This document shows positions 44,048 through 54,188 of a DNA stretch of 64,000 nt, one piece after another; position 1 is the first letter of the stretch, and the number at the start of each line of letters is the position of its first letter. The DNA is from Chelativorans alearensis (GTDB taxonomy: Bacteria; Pseudomonadota; Alphaproteobacteria; Rhizobiales; Rhizobiaceae), in NCBI RefSeq assembly GCF_010993735.1, contig NZ_WQNI01000008.1, positions 170,916 to 234,915 on the forward strand, given 5' to 3'. The position numbers were made by a program, and so were the translations under genes. The notes below the pieces were generated by a model, which made no database searches, was not told where the DNA came from, and worked only from the letters and a program-made list of their open reading frames with translations.

Positions 44048-46411
44048 ATGTCTGTCCTCGACCGCAAGCTCCTCCGCGATCTTGCCCGCATGTGGGCACA
44101 GGTGCTCGCCATCGCCCTGGTCATGGCCTGTGGCGTTGCCACACTCGTGCTGGCCATCGGCGCCTACCGCTCGCTCGACGAGACACGCGCGGCCTTCTAT
44201 GACCGCTACCGCTTCGCGACCGTCTTTTCGGGGCTGACGCGGGCGCCTCTTCAGCTCAAGACCCGGCTTTCATCGATCTCTGGCGTGAGCGGTATCGAGC
44301 TGCGCATTGTCAAGCCAGTCCTGCTGGACATCCCCGGCATGGTGGAGCCTGCGACCGGCATCGCCGTCTCGATCCCGGACTTCGGCGAGCCGGCGGTCAA
44401 TCGCCTCTACCTTCGTTCCGGGCGCCTGCCTGAACCGGGTCGTACTAGCGAGATCGCGGTGACGGAGCCATTCGCGGCCGCTCATCGGATGGCACCTGGC
44501 AGCCGCTTCGACGCCATCATGAACGGGCGCAAGCGGACGCTGACCGTTACGGGCATCGTGCTGTCACCGGAATATATCTACGCCATCGGGCCGGGCGACC
44601 TGGTCCCCGACCAGCGGCGCTTCGGCGTCTTTTTCATGCCGCGCACGGCGCTCGCCGGCATCTTCGACATGACCGGCGCCTTCAACGACGTGGCGATCCG
44701 CACCCAGAGGAACGTCGACCTACGCGCGGTGATCGACGCTCTCGATACCCTGCTCAAGCCCTACGGGGGAACGGGTGCACACGACCGGGATGACCAGATC
44801 TCGCACATGTTCCTGGACAGCGAACTGGTCCAGCTCCGCGCCATGGCGATGGTCATTCCGCCGGTCTTCCTGTTCGTCTCAGCGTTCCTGGTCAACATGA
44901 TCCTGACACGTCTCATCGCCCTTGAGCGCGAGCAGGTCGGGCTGATGAAAGCCGTCGGCTATGGCCCGATGGCGATCGCCTGGCACTACGCGAAACTGAC
45001 GCTAATCGTGGCCTTGGTCGGCATCGCCATCGGCTCGGTCGCCGGCAACTGGCTGGGGCGTGGCATGACGGACCTTTATGCCCGCTTCTATTCGTTCCCC
45101 TTCCTGATCTTCCGGCAGAGCCTCGACCTTTACGCCATTGCCGCCACCGTCAGCGCGCTGGCAGCGTTGGCAGGCAGCGCCCGCGCCATCTGGAGCGTGG
45201 TGCGCCTTCCGCCGGCGGTAGCGATGCAGCCACCGGCGCCCACGCGCTATCGCAGCCTGCTTGGGGCGGGATCGCGCCTTTTGCGGGTGTTTTCGCAGCT
45301 CACGATCATGGCCCTCCGCCACCTGATCCGCTGGCCGGTGCGCACCCTTACAACCGCACTTGGAACGTCGCTTGCTGTGGCGCTCCTGATCACGGCCCTG
45401 TTCGCGTTCGATTCAACAGCCTTCATGGTCGACACCGTGTTCACGCGCTCCGAACGCCAGGATGCGACCCTGTCCTTCAGTACAGAACGCTCTCCTCGCG
45501 CATTGCAGGAAGTGGCCGCCATGCCCGGTGTGCTGCGCGCGGAGGGTTTTCGCGCAACGCCGGTCATCCTGCGCCATGGCCATCGTGAGCGCCGGCTCGT
45601 GATCCAGGGGCTTGTTCGGGAAGCGGACCTTTCCCGCGCGCTCGACAAGGCTCTCGATTCCGTTGAGCCACCATCTTCAGGGCTGATGATCTCGGAGTGG
45701 GTCGCCAACTTGCTCGACCTGCACATTGGCGACATTGCCGAGGTCGAACTGTTGGAAAGAGACCATCGGATGGCGGCGGTGCCGATAAGCAGCGTCGTCG
45801 AAAGCTTCATCGGGCTCGCCGTCTACATGCGCACTGACGCCCTCGACCGGATGATCGGCGACGGGCCGCGGCTCTCAGGGGTGCATGTGGCCATCGACCC
45901 CTCGCAGCTCTCCAAGCTTTACGAGACCATCAAGCGCACGCCGGCGGTTGCGGCGATCGCTTTGCAGGGGCTCTCACGCGAGCGTTTTCGAGAGACAATC
46001 GAGGAGAACATCACCATCATGACGACCGTCTACGCCGCACTTGCCGTCATCATCACCTTCGGCGTCGTCTACAACTCGGCACGCATCCAGTTTTCGGAGC
46101 GGGCACGGGAACTGGCAAGCCTGCGTGTTCTCGGTTTCACCAAGGGCGAGGTGTCGAGTGTTCTCCTGATCGAACTCGGCGCGATCGTCGCGCTGGCGCA
46201 GCCGCTTGGCTGGCTGTTCGGCTATTTCTTTTCCTGGACGGTGGTGGAGGGATTCTCGAGCGACCTTTTCCGCGTCCCGTTCATCATTGACCGCTCCACA
46301 TTCGCCGCCTCCAGCCTCGTGGTGCTTGGCGTTGCGGCACTGTCGGCTCTGATCGTGCGCCGCCGTGTCGACAGGCTCGACCTCGTGCGTGTGCTCAAGA
46401 CAAGGGAATAG
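44048..46411 (+). CDS. FtsX-type ABC transporter permease
   Basis: These 787 residues have two FtsX domains separated by extracytoplasmic parts (about 50-240 and 460-650), with transmembrane helices near the N-terminus, 270-400 and 660-780. The stretch LIALEREQVGLMKAVGYGPM and the C-terminal ELASLRVLGFTKGEVSSVLL are typical coupling regions of this family. It is the membrane partner of the ATPase at 43336. The substrate is unknown. Confidence 0.9.
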   Translation: MSVLDRKLLRDLARMWAQVLAIALVMACGVATLVLAIGAYRSLDETRAAFYDRYRFATVFSGLTRAPLQLKTRLSSISGVSGIELRIVKPVLLDIPGMVEPATGIAVSIPDFGEPAVNRLYLRSGRLPEPGRTSEIAVTEPFAAAHRMAPGSRFDAIMNGRKRTLTVTGIVLSPEYIYAIGPGDLVPDQRRFGVFFMPRTALAGIFDMTGAFNDVAIRTQRNVDLRAVIDALDTLLKPYGGTGAHDRDDQISHMFLDSELVQLRAMAMVIPPVFLFVSAFLVNMILTRLIALEREQVGLMKAVGYGPMAIAWHYAKLTLIVALVGIAIGSVAGNWLGRGMTDLYARFYSFPFLIFRQSLDLYAIAATVSALAALAGSARAIWSVVRLPPAVAMQPPAPTRYRSLLGAGSRLLRVFSQLTIMALRHLIRWPVRTLTTALGTSLAVALLITALFAFDSTAFMVDTVFTRSERQDATLSFSTERSPRALQEVAAMPGVLRAEGFRATPVILRHGHRERRLVIQGLVREADLSRALDKALDSVEPPSSGLMISEWVANLLDLHIGDIAEVELLERDHRMAAVPISSVVESFIGLAVYMRTDALDRMIGDGPRLSGVHVAIDPSQLSKLYETIKRTPAVAAIALQGLSRERFRETIEENITIMTTVYAALAVIITFGVVYNSARIQFSERARELASLRVLGFTKGEVSSVLLIELGAIVALAQPLGWLFGYFFSWTVVEGFSSDLFRVPFIIDRSTFAASSLVVLGVAALSALIVRRRVDRLDLVRVLKTRE

Positions 46412-46415
46412 TCCG

Positions 46416-47612
46416 ATGAAATCCCTCTGGCTCAAACGCTCCTTGATGGCACTGGCGGCATTGGCGGCGGTCGCCGTCGTCGCCTGGTCCCTGCGCGAGC
46501 AACCGGCTCTCGTGGACGTCGCGGAGATAAGGCGAGCCCCCATGAAGGTGACGATCCGGGAAGAGGGCGTCACCCGCGTGCGCGAGGTTTACACGGTCTC
46601 CGCCCCTATCGCCGGGCACCTTTCTCGAACGGTGCTCAAGGAGGGCGACCGCGTGAAAGCGGGTGAGACCGTTGTGGCCAGTATCCACCCCCTCGACCCA
46701 CCTCTCCTCGACCGGCGCACTGAAGCGGAATTGCTCGCCGCCCGCGATGCCGCACGGTCCGCCGTCGGCATTGCCGGGAGTGAGTTGCGAAAGGCCGAGA
46801 CGGCCCTGCGATTGGCGGAGACGGAGCTTGAGCGCGCCCTCAAGCTGCATGGGCCGGGTATCATCTCCGAAAGCGCCTTGCAGAAGGTGACCAACGACGT
46901 CGAGTTGCAGAAGGCGGCCGTGGAGGCTGCCCAGGCAACGGTCCGGTTCCGCCGGGCGGAACTGGCGAGCGTGGAGGCACGGCTCCAACAGACCGACCTT
47001 CGCGATCCAAGGGGCGAGAGCTGCTGTGTCAACGTGCTTGCGCCAGTGGATGGCACAGTGCTTGGCGTGCTTGCCGAGAGTGAGCAGGCCGTGGCAGCCG
47101 GCGCGCAGATCGCCCAGATCGGCGATACGAGCGATCTCGAGGTGGTCGTCGACCTTTTATCGGCCGACGCCGTCCGCATCGCACCGGGAACCATCGCGCT
47201 CGTGCATGACTGGGGCGGCGATCGGCCCCTCGAGGCCACCGTCCGGCGTATCGATCCGGCCGCCTTCACCAAGGTTTCCGCGCTTGGCATCGAGGAGCAG
47301 CGCGTCAACACGGTTCTGGACCTCGAAGAAAGCGACGACCGCTTGGGACATGGTTATCGGGTGTTTGCGGAGATGACTGTCTGGAAGAGCGCAGACTGCC
47401 TGCAGGTGCCGATCAGCGCGCTTTTCCGCAACGGAGGTGACTGGAACGTGTTCACCGTCGAGGACGGCCGCCTGCGGCAAACGACGGTGGAGATCGGCCA
47501 GATGAACGACGAAGTGGCCGAGGTACTGGGCGGTGTCGAGGCTGGCGACGTCGTCGTCCTCCACCCTGCGGACACACTTGAGCAGGGTAGCTGGGTCGAT
47601 CGTAGAGAGTGA
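46416..47612 (+). CDS. HlyD-type periplasmic adaptor of the ABC exporter
   Basis: This 398-residue membrane fusion protein has an N-terminal transmembrane helix (about 8-25), lipoyl halves (APIAGHLSRTVLKEGDRVKA and NVLAPVDGTVLGVL), a coiled-coil hairpin (about 95-195) and a barrel domain. It begins 4 nt after the permease stop. It lets the FtsX-type pump reach the outer membrane. ATG 46416 provides the helix start; earlier codons overlap the permease gene. A Cys pair (ESCCVNV) in the lipoyl region is unusual. Confidence 0.85.
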   Translation: MKSLWLKRSLMALAALAAVAVVAWSLREQPALVDVAEIRRAPMKVTIREEGVTRVREVYTVSAPIAGHLSRTVLKEGDRVKAGETVVASIHPLDPPLLDRRTEAELLAARDAARSAVGIAGSELRKAETALRLAETELERALKLHGPGIISESALQKVTNDVELQKAAVEAAQATVRFRRAELASVEARLQQTDLRDPRGESCCVNVLAPVDGTVLGVLAESEQAVAAGAQIAQIGDTSDLEVVVDLLSADAVRIAPGTIALVHDWGGDRPLEATVRRIDPAAFTKVSALGIEEQRVNTVLDLEESDDRLGHGYRVFAEMTVWKSADCLQVPISALFRNGGDWNVFTVEDGRLRQTTVEIGQMNDEVAEVLGGVEAGDVVVLHPADTLEQGSWVDRRE

Positions 47613-47732: not shown

Positions 47733-48569
47733 CTATCGTGCCATAAGGACCGGCAGCGAGGACTGAGCGAGGATCGACTTCGTGACGCCACCGAAGATGC
47801 GCTCGCGGATGCGCGAATGGCCATAGGCGCCCATCACAAGGAGATCGGCCGCACAATCGACAGCGTGCCTCCGCAGGATTTCAGCGGTGGAATGACCTTG
47901 GCTCGATAGGCAGTCGACAGTCACCTTCGCACCGTGACGGGCAAGATAGGCCGCCGCATCGGCGCCCGGCTCCGCACCATGGCCGCTCTCGCTCTCAACC
48001 GGATCGACTGACACCAGCCGAACCTCCTCAGCGCCTTCAAGTATATCGAGGCACTCGCGCACCGCCCTTGCGGCTTCGATGCGCGAATCCCATGCAATCA
48101 TGATGCGTTTCGGGCTGAGTGTGGCCTGCCAACCTTCCGGGACGACCAGAAGCGGCTTGCCCGAGGAGAAGAGGGCCCCCTCGATTGCCTTACTCCTTAG
48201 TGTGCCGCCCGCGGGCAGGTCGGGCCAGACCACTGTAATGTCTGCATAGCGGCCGCGCCGACCGATCGCTTCGTCGGCCCACGCGACTTCCGTATATTCG
48301 CTTGCCACGTCCGTAGAGATGGATGTTGAAGCCAGGTATTGCGAGACCTGAACGGTGCGCCCCTGCAACGCTTCGAGATCAGCCCGTCGCTCCTCCATCC
48401 AGGCGTCGGAGGCCATTGCTGCATACTCTCCAACGGGCGGCGGCGCGGCAAGCGCGACGACAAGAACGGAAAGATGGGCCTTCGCCTCCTCGCACAGCGC
48501 AACGGCGTTCCCAAGATCGCCCTCAGCTTGGGTAAGGCCCGTGACCGTAAGAAGCGTCCTGAATGACAT
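47733..48569 (-). CDS. Universal stress protein (two-domain UspA)
   Basis: The 278 residues hold two Usp-fold halves. The C-terminal half has the ATP-binding pattern G-2x-G-9x-G in GAYGHSRIRERIFGGVTKSI. The N-terminal half is degenerate. ATG 48569 follows GGAG. A good FNR-type box lies 68 nt upstream. Usp proteins help survival during growth arrest and oxygen limitation. Confidence 0.88.
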   Translation of the reverse strand: MSFRTLLTVTGLTQAEGDLGNAVALCEEAKAHLSVLVVALAAPPPVGEYAAMASDAWMEERRADLEALQGRTVQVSQYLASTSISTDVASEYTEVAWADEAIGRRGRYADITVVWPDLPAGGTLRSKAIEGALFSSGKPLLVVPEGWQATLSPKRIMIAWDSRIEAARAVRECLDILEGAEEVRLVSVDPVESESGHGAEPGADAAAYLARHGAKVTVDCLSSQGHSTAEILRRHAVDCAADLLVMGAYGHSRIRERIFGGVTKSILAQSSLPVLMAR

Positions 48570-48636
48570 GATGACACTCCGCTCACCGTGGACGTCCAAG
48601 TGAGACATTCTATATCTCACTCGATCTATTCCCTTC

Positions 48637-48650
48637 TTGCGCTGAATCAA
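48637..48650 (-). promoter_or_regulatory. FNR/FixK-type box upstream of uspA
   Basis: TTGCGCTGAATCAA (TTGCG-N4-ATCAA) gives a predicted class II start near 48602 and a 33-nt leader for uspA. Confidence 0.6.
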
Positions 48651-48698
48651 ACCGCCAGCCGTTCACCGGCATATTATTAAGTAATGGCATCCGTGTGA

Positions 48699-48712
48699 TT
48701 GCTTTGGATCAA
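48699..48712 (+). promoter_or_regulatory. FNR/FixK-type box upstream of SHOCT gene
   Basis: TTGCTTTGGATCAA (TTGCT-N4-ATCAA). A class II start near 48747 gives about 95 nt of leader before ATG 48842. Confidence 0.5.
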
Positions 48713-48841
48713 GGCCGCACCGGAGGGGCTGTCTAGTGGAACCGTGTTGGGATGCCCGTCGAGATGGGCGGCGCAGCCGAGATTGCCAGGAGCAGCAGTA
48801 CATCCCCCGGTTGCCGTCTGGCGCAAAGGAGCAGGAACGTG

Positions 48842-49201
48842 ATGAGACTTACAGTATCGATCGGAACCATCGCAGGTGCAGCTATTGCTCTTCAGCCAGG
48901 TGCGGCATGGGCGCAAGCCTCCCCCGACTTCGACCGCTACGGCTGGGGACCGCACATGATGGGATGGGGTGGCGGGTGGTTCGGAATGATCTTCGGGCCG
49001 ATCTTCATGATCCTGGTGCTCGCCGTGGTGATCGCGGTCGCCGTTCTCCTCGTACGCTGGCTCGGCGGACCGTGGCAGGCCGCCGCCCCGCATCAGCCGC
49101 CATCGACGCGAACACCGCTCGATATCCTCAAGGAGCGCTTCGCGCGCGGGGAGATCGACAAGGAGGAATTCGAGGAGCGACGCCGCACTCTCGGCGAATG
49201 A
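48842..49201 (+). CDS. SHOCT-domain small membrane protein
   Basis: The 119 residues have a signal peptide or first helix (TVSIGTIAGAAIALQPGAAW), a Gly/Trp-rich stretch (GWGGGWFGM), a transmembrane helix (about 48-70) and a C-terminal SHOCT motif (LDILKERFARGEIDKEEFEE). SHOCT domains are short oligomerisation or linker modules. AAGGAG precedes ATG 48842. The DsrE gene follows by 27 nt in the same direction. Confidence 0.85.
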   Translation: MRLTVSIGTIAGAAIALQPGAAWAQASPDFDRYGWGPHMMGWGGGWFGMIFGPIFMILVLAVVIAVAVLLVRWLGGPWQAAAPHQPPSTRTPLDILKERFARGEIDKEEFEERRRTLGE

Positions 49202-49228
49202 ACCTCATCCATACCTGAGGTAACCCGA

Positions 49229-49579
49229 ATGAAGACCCTGTTCATCCTGAACGGTCCGCCCTATGGCACCGAGAGTTGCTACAATGCCCTTCGTCTTGCC
49301 CACACGCTCCTGAAAAAGGAGCCGGAAGCGGAGATTGCCGTCTTCCTGATGGCTGACGCCGTCATCGCAGCACGCAAGGGCCAGAGGACCCCGGACGGCT
49401 ATTACAACATAGAGCGCATGCTCAAGCGCGTGCTCGCGAAAGGCACCGTGTTGCTCTGCGGCACCTGCATGGACGCGCGCGGCATGACCGACAACGACGT
49501 CATGGATGGCGCGAAGCGCAGCACCATGGGCGAACTCGGGGATGCGACGCTTGGCGCTGACAAGGTACTGGTGTTCTGA
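49229..49579 (+). CDS. DsrE-family sulfur carrier-like protein
   Basis: This 116-residue protein has the DsrE/F-like fold: TLFILNGPPYGTESCYNALR at the N-terminus and a C-terminal CGTCMDARGM motif with two Cys that could carry persulfide sulfur. It probably handles sulfane sulfur in the cytosol, consistent with the sqr operon in the same block, but this is inference. It likely shares a transcript with the SHOCT gene. No FNR-type site precedes it directly. Confidence 0.85.
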   Translation: MKTLFILNGPPYGTESCYNALRLAHTLLKKEPEAEIAVFLMADAVIAARKGQRTPDGYYNIERMLKRVLAKGTVLLCGTCMDARGMTDNDVMDGAKRSTMGELGDATLGADKVLVF

Positions 49580-49730: not shown

Positions 49731-50231
49731 CTAAAGTTGTCGGCGACGTATCGTCTCCGCGAGCTCGGCAAAAGTTTCCGCGAGCCCGGTGCCGGTCTTC
49801 GCGCTCACGAAATTGACAGTCGAGGGCGCGAGATCTCCAATCTGTCCGTCGCTTCCCCCGCTTTCTGCGAGATCTATCTTGTTTACAAGAGCCCTGTAGG
49901 GTCTTCCTGGAAATCTTGACTCAAAGCTGCGCGCCAATTCGACCATGTGCGTGACCGTTTGCGGCCGCGTTATATCCGATACGATGATCGCCGCCGAAGC
50001 GCCCGCAACGTAGACGGTTTCGAAAATACGCGTTCCAAAATCGCCGTCCGTATCCCACAGCACGAGGCGCGTCGGTTCACCCCCGTCGGCAGGGACATCA
50101 TAACTGAGAATTTCGACGCCAAGCGTCGTCATGTATTCCCCGTCGAAGCGATCATGTACGAGGCGATACATGACCGAGGTCTTGCCGACACCCATATCAC
50201 CGAGCAGCATGACTTTTGCCGTGAGCATCAC
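49731..50231 (-). CDS. Rab-like small GTPase
   Basis: This is a 166-residue Ras-superfamily GTPase. Motifs in order: P-loop GDMGVGKTS (11-19), switch I Thr36, G3 WDTDG (59-63), G4 NKID (117-120), G5 SAK (143-145). The residue after G3, normally Gln in Ras/Rab proteins, is Asp64, so intrinsic hydrolysis may differ. There is no lipid-anchor motif. The GTG start overlaps the stop of the OmpA-domain gene (50228), indicating translational coupling. The partner is probably the longin/roadblock-like cytoplasmic region of that protein. Confidence 0.85.
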   Translation of the reverse strand: MMLTAKVMLLGDMGVGKTSVMYRLVHDRFDGEYMTTLGVEILSYDVPADGGEPTRLVLWDTDGDFGTRIFETVYVAGASAAIIVSDITRPQTVTHMVELARSFESRFPGRPYRALVNKIDLAESGGSDGQIGDLAPSTVNFVSAKTGTGLAETFAELAETIRRRQL

Positions 50232-51940
50232 TGAGCCGGTTCGGTTTGAAACACGTTTTCGAAAGTAACCCGACGATTTGCGGCATTCGTTGCGCCGATT
50301 CTGTCGGCAATCGGCATCGATGCCGAGCGCGAAACGACAACCAATCGCGAGGGTTCGACCCCAAGAGAGATCAGCTTCTGTACTACCTGCTCCGCTCTGT
50401 TGAGAGCAAGTATCCTGTTGGTGGAATCGGACCCTATATGGTCCGTATGCCCGACGACTCGAACCCTCAGATCGTTGTCTGCAAGCAATCCCGCCAGCTG
50501 CCGCATCTGCCGCTCGGCCTCTTCGCGGTCGATGAATTCGTCGGTACCCGTGCGGAAGAAAACGGCCGCTGAAGCCATGAAGCGGGCGAGCCGTTCCGCA
50601 GGACCGTCGACAATGGACTGCAGCCTGCTGTATTGCTCGCTCAACTCGGCATATCGCCGATCTTGGGATTTCGTCTCTTCGGCAATCGCCCCGCGCGTTT
50701 CGTCGATGGTCTTTTGTATGTGCGCAAGTGACTGCTGTATAGTGGCGATATCGGCCTGCAATGCCGCCGACTGTTCCAGTTCGGGCACGATGCCGATCTG
50801 GTCAATGATCCGATATGGAGCCGCGGCCTCGGCCAGCGCTCCGATCACGGGAACGACATCCACTTGGCTGGGCTCAATGCCGGAGACCGTGAGCCGTCGA
50901 TTGCCATGGTCAAAGTCCAGCCGCAGCGGAAACGAAGCCAGCAACGGCTGCTCGTCGACAAGTTGCTGTAGCGCAGCGTTCGTCCGTTGCTCCAGCATCG
51001 TGCGAGTCACGAACGTGCCGGCGAACCAAGCGAGCAGGGCAGCGGCGAGAGTGACAAATATAAGCAGAACAACCCTTCCACGCCTTCTCTTCTTCTTGCG
51101 AGAGAGAGGATCGTTTTCGATGGACGTTGCCAATGCGGCAAGCGTCGCAGCATCGTGCTCCAAGCCGTGGTCCATGCTCTCAATCATGTCATAGAAAAGT
51201 GAATTGATCCTGGCTTCGTCGGCTGCACGCAGGAGGCCGATGCACTCTGCCGCCAGGATGAATCGCGGCGATGCGCGAAGCACGATCTCCTTTCCGCCGA
51301 AATCGAGCTTTTGTAGACTGCCTTCTTCGGCTAGCGCCTGAACCGAAAATTCAAGGATCGCTGCAACCATCGCGCTCATCAGGTCCGCGCGTTCGTCGGG
51401 GATGCCCTCCCGCTTCCAGTCTGCGATGAGGCGTCCACTGCCGCGTTCAATGATCAGCAACCGGTTAACCCGGGGCGGGTTGCTGTCCGCCAGCACGAAC
51501 TCGCTGATCGGACGGCCGGTCACCAGCGACTTGAGGCGCCCGCTCCAAAGTTCCGCGAATGTCAGCGCGCCAATGCGCTCCTCCAGAAACGCAACCAGTT
51601 GCTTGAAAGCATTTGCCACGGCTGCGCTGACCAGCCTCCCAATAATAGGATAGAGCGCATCGACCATCAGCTCGCGCGAATTCTTGATCTCGCTCCTGAC
51701 TGCGGAAACTACGGAGGGAGCAATGACGTTCGCAAGTTCGCGCGGCTGACGGACTTCCGCCCGCTCCAACGCGGAGACCAATATGTCTGCCGTTGCCGCT
51801 TCGAGGCGGTCGGGGTCGCCTACATACCGCTGGAGGAAAGCGACATCTGTTTCCAGCGTCTCAAGACGCGTCGCCTCCGCTTGAAAGAGCAATGTTTTGA
51901 GTTGCTCCATCTCGCGGCTCTGGCCGGCTGCAGATGCCAT
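50228..51940 (-). CDS. Membrane protein with longin/roadblock-like N-part and OmpA C-domain
   Basis: The 570 residues divide as follows. Residues 1-280 are cytoplasmic and contain a helical part followed by an alpha/beta region (about 150-250: VNRLLIIERGSGRLIADWKR, then LQKLDFGGKEIVLRASPRF) resembling longin or roadblock domains that bind small GTPases. A basic stretch RKKKRRR (281-287) precedes one transmembrane helix (288-311). The periplasmic part has a BON-like region (318-385), a coiled coil (390-445) and an OmpA peptidoglycan-binding domain (455-565, with VVGHTDHIGSDSTNRILALN). ATG 51940 lies one base after the stop of the coiled-coil gene. I infer a bridge from a cytosolic GTPase to the cell wall. 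Confidence 0.8.
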   Translation of the reverse strand: MASAAGQSREMEQLKTLLFQAEATRLETLETDVAFLQRYVGDPDRLEAATADILVSALERAEVRQPRELANVIAPSVVSAVRSEIKNSRELMVDALYPIIGRLVSAAVANAFKQLVAFLEERIGALTFAELWSGRLKSLVTGRPISEFVLADSNPPRVNRLLIIERGSGRLIADWKREGIPDERADLMSAMVAAILEFSVQALAEEGSLQKLDFGGKEIVLRASPRFILAAECIGLLRAADEARINSLFYDMIESMDHGLEHDAATLAALATSIENDPLSRKKKRRRGRVVLLIFVTLAAALLAWFAGTFVTRTMLEQRTNAALQQLVDEQPLLASFPLRLDFDHGNRRLTVSGIEPSQVDVVPVIGALAEAAAPYRIIDQIGIVPELEQSAALQADIATIQQSLAHIQKTIDETRGAIAEETKSQDRRYAELSEQYSRLQSIVDGPAERLARFMASAAVFFRTGTDEFIDREEAERQMRQLAGLLADNDLRVRVVGHTDHIGSDSTNRILALNRAEQVVQKLISLGVEPSRLVVVSRSASMPIADRIGATNAANRRVTFENVFQTEPAQ

Positions 51941-51941
51941 G

Positions 51942-52301
51942 CTACTTTCCTGAGCGGCCGGACCCCAGTTCGCTGATGGTCGCACCAAGCTGCGAAATGG
52001 CAGCACCGATCTCCTTATGCGAAGCGAGTTGCTTGTTTTCGCTGTTCCGCTCGAGTTCTTCGACCATTGCTTGCACAGCCGCCAACTCCTTCTCAAACTC
52101 CGCTTTGAGTTCTTTGAAGGTAGCCTGCATCTCTTCCCGCAGGTCAACTAGTCTATTTTCGATCGACCGCTGGGCACCGCCGAACAAGAGATCACGGACT
52201 TGATCTATTGTCTCCTCGGGGCGCGCTATCGCTTCCTTTTCACTCGGAGAAACATTCCCGTTCACATCCTTTTCGATCTGCTCAACGTTCTGCATGGTCA
52301 T
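51942..52301 (-). CDS. Small coiled-coil protein upstream of the OmpA/GTPase genes
   Basis: This 119-residue soluble protein is mostly helical, with a strong heptad pattern (SIENRLVDLREEMQATFKEL, then AEFEKELAAVQAMVEELERN). The segment VRDLLFGGAQRSIENR may be a recognition motif. The C-terminal third has AAISQLGATISELG. Its stop is 1 base before the next gene, so it is the first member of a three-gene operon. No family name is certain; the role is inferred as an oligomeric scaffold for the downstream OmpA-domain protein. Confidence 0.7.
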   Translation of the reverse strand: MTMQNVEQIEKDVNGNVSPSEKEAIARPEETIDQVRDLLFGGAQRSIENRLVDLREEMQATFKELKAEFEKELAAVQAMVEELERNSENKQLASHKEIGAAISQLGATISELGSGRSGK

Positions 52302-52396
52302 TCTCCAGATATCCCGCCATTACTGAAGGAAATTTGCCCCCGCCCGCAGACAGCACAAAATCCCGGGCACTCAGTCCCGAAAGTATGGATTTGTCA

Positions 52397-53086
52397 TTAC
52401 CCCGTTAAGCCAATTGTCCTTATCGCCAACTCAGTCCGGTTTCTAGCCCCGCACTTCTCCAGAATCGTGCTCACATAATTCTTTATCGTGCCCTCGGCCA
52501 AATGCAGTCGCTCGCCGATTTCGCTATTGCTCTTGCCCTCGACCACCAGTCTGAGAATTTCGTTCTCGCGCGCCGTCAGGCCGTTGTTGTGAACAGGAAG
52601 ACTCGCCGGGACGTGCCGGGGGCGCAGCCGCTTGAACTCGTTGAGGACGCGCGCGGTAACGCTTGGCGAAAGCGCCGATTGGCCGTTCATCACCGTGCGG
52701 ATCGTTGCCGCAATCTCATCGATCCTGGCGTCCTTCAAAAGATATGCCTTCGCGCCAGCGCTGACGGCTTCGAAGATCAAATCGTTCGTCTCGAAAGTAG
52801 TCAGGACGACAATATTGGTTTTCGGAAACTCGCGGAGGATTCGATGGGTCGCCGCAATGCCGTCGACACGCGGCATTTGCAAATCCATCAAGATGACATC
52901 GGGCCGATATCGGCGCGCAAATTCGATCGCCTGCTCGCCGTTGGCTGCACCCGGGAGAATTTCGAAGTCGTCGTTCTGCTGGGCAAGGAGCGTGGCAAGG
53001 CCTTCCCTTATCAGCGTCTGATCTTCGGCGATCAGCACACGCACCGCGTCAATTTGCTCACGCAACTCGCTCACCGGCCCCACCAT
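52397..53086 (-). CDS. NarL/FixJ-type response regulator
   Basis: The 229 residues form a receiver domain with phospho-acceptor Asp68 (VILMDLQMPRVDG) followed by a LuxR-type HTH (about 160-225, LTARENEILRLVVEGKSNSE). The ATG at 53086 overlaps the kinase gene end by 29 bases, so the pair is translated together. It lies directly upstream of the coiled-coil/OmpA/GTPase operon (95 bases between), its most likely target. Confidence 0.88.
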   Translation of the reverse strand: MVGPVSELREQIDAVRVLIAEDQTLIREGLATLLAQQNDDFEILPGAANGEQAIEFARRYRPDVILMDLQMPRVDGIAATHRILREFPKTNIVVLTTFETNDLIFEAVSAGAKAYLLKDARIDEIAATIRTVMNGQSALSPSVTARVLNEFKRLRPRHVPASLPVHNNGLTARENEILRLVVEGKSNSEIGERLHLAEGTIKNYVSTILEKCGARNRTELAIRTIGLTG

Positions 53087-54188
53087 CCTTTCGGCGACTC
53101 CATAACTGCGCGCCGGTGTCCACATGTGTGCCTGAAGAGTATGCTGCCGGCGATGCGGTTGCGGGCAGCGATATGTGTACCAGCGTTCCCTCCCCGTGCG
53201 CGCTCTTCACGGTGCATTTGCCGTCGGCGAGTTCAGCAAACTCCACCATTCCGATCAAACCGAAGTGCCCTGGCTTCGCAACGACGGGATCAAAACCGCA
53301 TCCATCGTCATGGATCTCGACAACGAGTCTTCTACCGGCTTCAGTCTCCGTTTCGATCGCACGAAACTGAACGCTTTGCGCCTTCGCGTGCGCCTCGATG
53401 TTGCGCAACGCCTCGCTGAGGATGCGCTGAACCGTCAACGCGTGATTTCGCAACCCATCGCGAGCCCTATTATCGATATGCACCGAGACCTCGGTGCCGC
53501 TCTGTTCTGCAAAATCGGATAACATCCCCTCAACGTCCGGCGCCGGTTCAAGCTCATCGGGCATCCGAAGACGAGCTATGGCATCGCGTGCGCGCGCCAA
53601 CCCGTTTATAGCCGCCTCTTCTGCGGTCGCAAGGCCCTCGGATACGCGGGCGGGGTCCGTCGATTGAAAGTGTTGAATTAGCCGAATCTGGGTCAAAAGC
53701 GCCATGATCGAATGCACGAGCGTGTCGTGAAGGTCCCGCGCCAGTCGCAGGCGGGTTCGCGCAAGCGAGGCAAAGCGCGCTTCGGAGTTGGCCGCTTCGA
53801 GCTGTTGCTCCATCACGCGACGGGCGCGGCGCTCGCTTTCAAACAGGATTCCGACCTGCCGCGCCGCAAAATCAGGTATCGCGATCACGACATAATGGGA
53901 CTGGTCCCTGTTCCACATGATGGCCGCCGTCACCGGATGATCCAGTCCGGGTGATGCGCCGCGCACGCCCGATAGAGCAATTATATCCCGCTGGCCTTTA
54001 GCCAGGGTAGCCAATTCGGATTCCATTCCGACCAACAGCATGCACTGGCAGCAATCTGCTCCCTTCTCCGGAAGCCAATCGACCAAGCGCCCGATTTTCC
54101 GCTGGATCGTTCTGTCGGCACTGACAACGGCAAGCCCTATGACATCGGCTTCTGCGGCCGATTGCAACTCAGCGGCAAGGTCAATCAT
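53058..54188 (-). CDS. Soluble sensor histidine kinase (HisKA_3 type)
   Basis: The 376 residues show an N-terminal sensor-like region (about 1-115) with no clear transmembrane helix, a dimerisation helix with the phospho-accepting His154 in RDLHDTLVHSIMALL, and a C-terminal HATPase domain (GHFGLIGMVEFAELADGKC). The sensor part contains three close Cys (46, 47, 49) in ADCCQCMLLVG, a possible redox or metal site. ATG 54188 follows GGAG with 5-nt spacing. It pairs with the overlapping response regulator gene. Confidence 0.85.
   Translation of the reverse strand: MIDLAAELQSAAEADVIGLAVVSADRTIQRKIGRLVDWLPEKGADCCQCMLLVGMESELATLAKGQRDIIALSGVRGASPGLDHPVTAAIMWNRDQSHYVVIAIPDFAARQVGILFESERRARRVMEQQLEAANSEARFASLARTRLRLARDLHDTLVHSIMALLTQIRLIQHFQSTDPARVSEGLATAEEAAINGLARARDAIARLRMPDELEPAPDVEGMLSDFAEQSGTEVSVHIDNRARDGLRNHALTVQRILSEALRNIEAHAKAQSVQFRAIETETEAGRRLVVEIHDDGCGFDPVVAKPGHFGLIGMVEFAELADGKCTVKSAHGEGTLVHISLPATASPAAYSSGTHVDTGAQLWSRRKDGGAGERVA

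What the first reader, a model, noticed from the sequence alone, without database searches (positions are those of the whole stretch)
49731..52301. Rab-like GTPase coupled to a longin/roadblock-OmpA membrane protein and a coiled-coil protein
Seen: three minus-strand genes with 1-base spacing and a stop/start overlap encode a coiled-coil protein, a membrane protein with an alpha/beta cytoplasmic region, one transmembrane helix and a periplasmic OmpA domain, and a Ras-superfamily GTPase. Known: longin/roadblock-type domains act as platforms or regulators for small GTPases (for example MglA/MglB), and OmpA domains bind peptidoglycan. Inference: the operon may form a nucleotide-switched link between cytoplasm and cell wall.
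Basis: partly seen in the sequence, partly recalled or inferred. Interest (0 to 1): 0.78.

Follow-up and report, generated by a model that had tools for sequence, protein, structure and literature searches.

The report
Cell-wall-anchored Rab-like GTPase signalling cluster
This bacterial gene cluster encodes a Rab-like GTPase beside a membrane protein that carries a peptidoglycan-binding-type domain and a part predicted to fold like the longin domains that serve Rab GTPases in eukaryotes, and together they would likely let the state of the cell wall control a neighbouring two-component gene regulator.

The parts
53058..54188 (-). Histidine kinase (HisKA_3 + HATPase_c), no obvious membrane helix; output module; start chosen at the conserved MIDL
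   Evidence: Pfam HisKA_3 1.2e-10, HATPase_c 8.6e-9; near the trio in 45 of 58 relatives
53871..54188 (-). N-terminal input domain of the kinase, predicted PAS fold running into a long signalling helix
52397..53086 (-). NarL/LuxR-type response regulator (receiver + GerE)
   Evidence: Pfam Response_reg 1.7e-25, GerE 2.9e-17; overlaps the kinase end
52361..52382 (-). Weak terminator-like hairpin in the 95-base gap between regulator and coiled-coil gene
   Evidence: fewer such sites in the region (3) than in shuffles (mean 4.9), so no evidence of a terminator
51942..52301 (-). Coiled-coil protein with conserved TIDQVRxLLFG motif
   Evidence: present in 57 of 58 close relatives and 20 of 20 distant loci; motif shared with the start of the next protein
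50228..51940 (-). 570-aa longin-TM-OmpA membrane protein
51473..51940 (-). Residues 1-156: cytoplasmic helical region, strongly conserved, with EQLKTLLF motif near its start
51113..51472 (-). Residues 157-276: predicted longin domain (b-b-a-b-b-b-a-a)
51008..51073 (-). Residues 290-311: transmembrane helix after a basic stretch
   Evidence: sequence; helix 284-330
50789..50944 (-). Residues 333-384: small periplasmic a-b-b-a-b element (BON-like by topology only)
   Evidence: secondary structure; name recalled, no fold search of this part alone
50276..50560 (-). Residues 461-555: OmpA-like peptidoglycan-binding-type domain, Asp500 and Arg515 kept
49731..50228 (-). Rab-like small GTPase; P-loop GDMGVGKT, NKID and SAK intact, G3 is WDTDGD (no catalytic Gln)
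   Evidence: Pfam Ras 1.9e-20; best solved relatives Ypt7 8.4e-17, Sec4, Rab22A; motifs in 75 loci

Best explanation
The cluster encodes a Group 1 Rup-type signalling system in which a cell-wall-anchored membrane receptor would set the nucleotide state of a Rab-like GTPase through a predicted longin domain, and the GTPase would in turn gate a PAS-histidine kinase and its NarL-type regulator. Shown by sequence: gene order, domains, one hydrophobic helix, intact nucleotide-binding motifs, absence of the catalytic Gln, conservation of the set. Predicted: the longin and PAS folds. Inferred: the OmpA domain holds the receptor to peptidoglycan and reports strain or spacing of the envelope; the longin domain (with the coiled-coil protein, which shares an N-terminal motif with the receptor and may pair with it) is the GTPase's docking and exchange platform; GTP-GTPase binds the kinase's PAS/linker region and switches phosphorylation of the regulator. 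The output enzyme is interchangeable: other lineages put a class III cyclase, a GGDEF-EAL protein or a hybrid kinase behind the GTPase. Because none of 75 GTPases has the Gln, turnover would be slow without a partner, so the switch is likely long-lived.
For: Conserved set; GTPase and longin protein in 47 shared genomes of a union of 51 among 398, side by side in 45 of the 47; kinase PAS domain in 5 of 398 genomes, all 5 with the longin protein, in one of them (G187) 2.8 Mb away; kinase-regulator pair kept in two arrangements, 34 upstream on the same strand and 8 downstream on the opposite strand of 57 loci parsed; longin fold; OmpA; PAS; no Gln in 75 of 75, window included; other outputs in 18 of 20 distant loci directly behind the GTPase; no roadblock gene (PF03259) in this genome, control rings in 3 of 14; 2014 description of the neighbourhood.
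Against: No interaction was tested. The longin match is fold-level on a model of mean pLDDT 71.5 and pTM 0.30, the domain was not folded alone, and Foldseek's 50 best rows were all OmpA/Pal-type; no match to a Pfam longin family or to any PDB sequence. The kinase domain is missing from 13 of 58 close loci: 4 contigs are cut, 4 have a regulator but no kinase (in L051 about 5 kb off), 5 of 6 Rhodoblastus-labelled loci show no output among the neighbours examined. The kinase's PAS domain is not detectably homologous to the input domains of the cyclases (hhalign P 0.011, 0.1 with larger sets). A 95-base gap with a terminator-like hairpin separates regulator and coiled-coil genes. The co-occurrence counts ignore shared ancestry, and the genome searches scored only the best 6 to 10 candidates per genome, so they are lower bounds.
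Confidence: 0.55

Rival explanations
1. The OmpA domain is an anchor, not a sensor: the receptor fixes the GTPase to a place in the envelope (pole or septum) and the GTPase acts as a positional mark for the kinase, as MglA does for motility.
For: OmpA domain and membrane anchor; MglA is a polarity switch (abstracts in the listing).
Against: Nothing found here bears directly on it; neighbours were not annotated for polarity genes. The output enzymes are general signalling enzymes, which fits either reading.
Confidence: 0.2
2. The GTPase and longin protein form a stable scaffold; without the catalytic Gln the GTPase stays GTP-bound and only reports GTP supply, and the kinase responds to its own PAS ligand.
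For: No Gln in 75 of 75; PAS domain on the kinase; no invariant Gln in the kinase's input region.
Against: G1, G4 and G5 are conserved where the motif is present (G1 missing from 3 of 75 and G5 from 1 of 75 aligned rows), which fits a working switch; in MglA the GAP is a separate protein, MglB (abstracts).
Confidence: 0.15
3. Kinase and regulator are an unrelated two-component system that merely sits beside the trio.
For: Intergenic gap with terminator-like hairpin; 13 of 58 close loci without the kinase domain.
Against: Kinase input domain found only in genomes with the longin protein, 5 of 5, kept in two different arrangements; 4 distant loci have a kinase or hybrid kinase directly 3' of the GTPase.
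Confidence: 0.07

Closest known systems
Group 1 Rup GTPase neighbourhoods (Wuichet and Sogaard-Andersen 2014, PMC4316618; 12 of 19 passages and the outline seen)
   Same: Small Ras-type GTPase without the G3 Gln, coiled-coil gene, unknown domain-TM-OmpA gene, output module (typically GGDEF/EAL or histidine kinase); a Mesorhizobium loti member is named.
   Different: Here the unknown domain is assigned a predicted longin fold; outputs also include class III cyclases and hybrid kinases; in this kinase class the reported invariant Gln is not conserved; the kinase is paired with a NarL-type regulator and sits upstream.
Actinobacterial conservons (CvnA-D)
   Same: Kinase-like protein plus small Ras-like GTPase plus a protein of the roadblock/longin kind (abstract in listings).
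   Different: Conservons use an MglB-type roadblock protein and an MglA-family GTPase; no roadblock gene in this genome, and here the longin part is joined to an OmpA receptor.
MglA/MglB polarity module
   Same: Small GTPase with an a/b platform protein.
   Different: No PF03259 roadblock in the genome; G3 keeps the Asp (WDTDG), which MglA lacks, and the best solved relatives are Rabs.
TRAPP complexes with Rab1/Ypt1
   Same: A longin pair (Bet5/Trs23) contacts Ypt1 (passages of PMC10933270); the best longin match is a chain of a TRAPPIII-Ypt1 entry (which subunit was not checked).
   Different: No TRAPP/Bet3-type subunit was sought; here one membrane receptor with a periplasmic domain.

Membership tests
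Group 1 Rup GTPase system (2014) | Single-domain Ras-superfamily GTPase of 150-240 aa | tested here: met
   165 aa, Pfam Ras 1.9e-20
Group 1 Rup GTPase system (2014) | G3 motif lacks the catalytic Gln | tested here: met
   WDTDGD here; no Gln in 75 of 75 loci, window included
Group 1 Rup GTPase system (2014) | Neighbouring coiled-coil gene and unknown-domain/TM/OmpA gene | tested here: met
Group 1 Rup GTPase system (2014) | Fourth conserved gene is a signalling output (typically GGDEF/EAL or histidine kinase) | tested here: met
   Kinase 54188..53058; near the trio in 45 of 58 close loci; 5 of 5 genome co-occurrence
Group 1 Rup GTPase system (2014) | Invariant Gln in the N-terminal region of the output protein (a reported feature, not one of the stated criteria for the group: tree, taxonomy, neighbourhood) | tested here: not met
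   No Gln among invariant or 90% columns in 21 kinase N-termini; a QQ motif is present in 13 of 13 cyclase and hybrid-kinase N-termini aligned
Group 1 Rup GTPase system (2014) | Placement in the Group 1 clade of the GTPase tree | not tested
   No tree was built; the 2014 sequences, including M. loti mll3243, were not fetched
Longin domain | b-b-a-b-b-b-a-a topology and fold match to longin structures | tested here: met
Longin domain | Recognisable sequence match | tested here: not met
   No longin family among Pfam matches up to E 1, no PDB sequence up to E 10
Longin domain | Binds a small GTPase (true of some longins) | not testable with these tools
   no complex prediction or assay available
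MglA/MglB module | MglB-type roadblock partner | tested here: not met
   PF03259: 0 matches in the own genome, control rings in 3 of 14 genomes
OmpA-like peptidoglycan-binding domain | OmpA fold with ligand Asp and Arg (residue roles recalled) | tested here: met
   PF00691 2.3e-14; Asp500 at 90% or more, Arg515 invariant in 26 sequences
PAS domain (kinase N-terminus) | PAS fold | tested here: met

The most novel reading that the evidence does not exclude
Bacteria run a Rab-longin switch at the cell wall: a Rab-like GTPase partnered by a membrane-spanning longin receptor, with plug-in outputs (kinase, cyclase, c-di-GMP enzyme). Since the 2014 analysis placed Group 1 Rup GTPases very close to eukaryotic Rab/Ran/Ras/Rho, the Rab-longin partnership of eukaryotic traffic would have a working bacterial counterpart, or even a bacterial source.
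Probability: 0.4. Interest if true: 0.82.

Novelty: new variant of a known kind. Interest (0 to 1): 0.6.

Why it matters
If true, it says how a class of Rab-like GTPases that the 2014 survey called experimentally uncharacterized is coupled to the envelope and to gene control, and it gives a testable receptor-GTPase-effector chain in culturable Hyphomicrobiales. It also bears on where the pairing of Rab GTPases with longin platforms arose.

Tried and rejected
Roadblock rather than longin: the predicted order of elements is that of longin and the three non-OmpA matches shown are longin chains; no roadblock row is among the 50 shown, which does not exclude kinship of the two folds. Foldseek alone showed only OmpA/Pal-type rows for the whole protein. 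The domain was not refolded alone, because the second and last folding job went to the kinase input domain.

Gln supplied in trans by the output protein (2014 idea): possible for cyclases and hybrid kinases (QQ motif in 13 of 13; the 3 GGDEF-EAL proteins carry Gln nearby, register uncertain), not supported for this kinase class.

One common input domain for all outputs: not supported by profile comparison between kinase and cyclase N-termini (P 0.011 with a small set, 0.1 with larger sets; unrelated controls gave 0.02 to 0.48). Only place and PAS-like layout agree.

Papers: searches listed no report of a longin domain in these proteins and no experiment on a Group 1 Rup system; each listing is capped, and the library lacks most subscription papers. 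Seen as passages: PMC4316618, PMC4917890, PMC10933270, and the outline of the first. All other papers: listings with starts of abstracts only. Whether the 2014 supplement already lists cyclase outputs is unknown to me.

L105 gave no recognised output gene; L119 has the regulator adjacent and the kinase elsewhere. The first neighbour script lost L029 and several GTPases to overlapping reading frames; one search recounted by domain position, and its numbers are used except for orientation counts.

Full report
The locus. Searches confirm the three minus-strand genes and their spacing. The 570-aa protein has, in order, a long helical cytoplasmic part, an a/b domain, a basic stretch and one hydrophobic helix, a small periplasmic a/b element, a long helix and an OmpA domain. 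The GTPase keeps the P-loop, NKxD and SAK motifs, and G3 reads WDTDGD, so the catalytic Gln is missing. Its closest solved relatives by sequence are Ypt7, Sec4 and Rab22A. Directly upstream on the same strand lie a histidine kinase and a NarL-type response regulator.

What it is. The neighbourhood matches the one that Wuichet and Sogaard-Andersen described in 2014 for Group 1 Rup GTPases: a GTPase lacking the G3 Gln, a coiled-coil protein, a protein with an unknown domain, a TM helix and an OmpA domain, and an output module (passages of PMC4316618). They named a Mesorhizobium loti member and wrote that no Rup protein had been experimentally characterized.

Conservation. Sixty loci were found in named genomes; 58 encode the longin part and 2 (L063, L064) match only by OmpA. 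Counted by domain position, the GTPase follows in 54 of 58 and the other 4 contigs end there; the coiled coil precedes in 57 of 58; the kinase input domain is present in 45 of 58. In the 57 loci that an earlier script parsed (L029 was lost to an overlapping frame), kinase and regulator lie upstream on the same strand in 34 and downstream on the opposite strand in 8. In a sample of 398 Pseudomonadota genomes the longin part is found in 48 (E up to 1e-3), the GTPase in 50 (E up to 1e-15), both in 47, and side by side in 45 of those 47. The two exceptions have the pair on different contigs; three genomes have the GTPase alone and one the longin part alone. Each genome search scored only the best few candidates, so the counts are lower bounds. 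Within the window's genus 2 of 16 genomes have it, so it is patchy.

The kinase belongs. A profile of its N-terminal domain finds 5 of 398 genomes, and all 5 are among the 48 with the longin part. In one (G187) the kinase is 2.8 Mb away while the regulator stays next to the GTPase. Ancestry is shared, so the nominal probability of 2e-5 overstates the case. Against this, 13 of 58 close loci lack the kinase domain: 4 contigs are cut, 4 have only a regulator, and 5 Rhodoblastus loci show no output among the neighbours examined.

A shared start. The coiled-coil protein and the longin protein both carry a QVR/QLK-x-LLF motif near the start (hhalign P 4.5e-4, probability 33%, 23 columns, one comparison), which suggests that they pair; this is inference.

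How it likely works. The receptor's OmpA domain would hold peptidoglycan; a change in the envelope would be passed through the TM helix to the longin domain, which would alter the GTPase's nucleotide state; the GTPase would then bind the PAS-linker of the kinase and change phosphorylation of the regulator. Steps shown: genes, domains, conservation. Steps predicted: folds. Steps inferred: every interaction and the nature of the signal.

Verdict.

Noticed in passing
L101-L104, L111-L117: Class III adenylate/guanylate cyclases directly 3' of Rup-type GTPases in several families, including genomes of the window's own family whose longin proteins have open frames of 885-1050 aa (L112-L117).
   Followed up: partly
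L045, L055, L057, L058, L059: Rhodoblastus loci keep coiled coil, longin-OmpA and GTPase, but no output gene was found among the neighbours examined; three of them (L045, L055, L059) have a D-Ala-D-Ala carboxypeptidase with a SPOR domain a few kb downstream.
   Followed up: partly
L043, L047, L049, L051: Methylocystaceae-type loci keep a NarL-type regulator (about 5 kb off in L051) but no kinase was found nearby; in G187 (L119) the kinase is 2.8 Mb away.
   Followed up: partly
G340, G172, G266; G017, G025: The first three have a GTPase of this family without a detected longin partner; the last two have a second GTPase copy elsewhere.
   Followed up: no
L006:3761-5314: A weak phage-integrase match (1.5e-5, below the Pfam cut-off) just downstream of the GTPase in Mesorhizobium sp. 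ORS 3428; with 2 of 16 same-genus genomes holding the system, it may move.
   Followed up: no
47733-49579: Next to the cluster: universal stress protein, SHOCT-domain membrane protein and DsrE-like gene.
   Followed up: no
44048-47612: FtsX-type permease overlapping a HlyD-type membrane fusion protein gene on the plus strand, probably an export unit.
   Followed up: no
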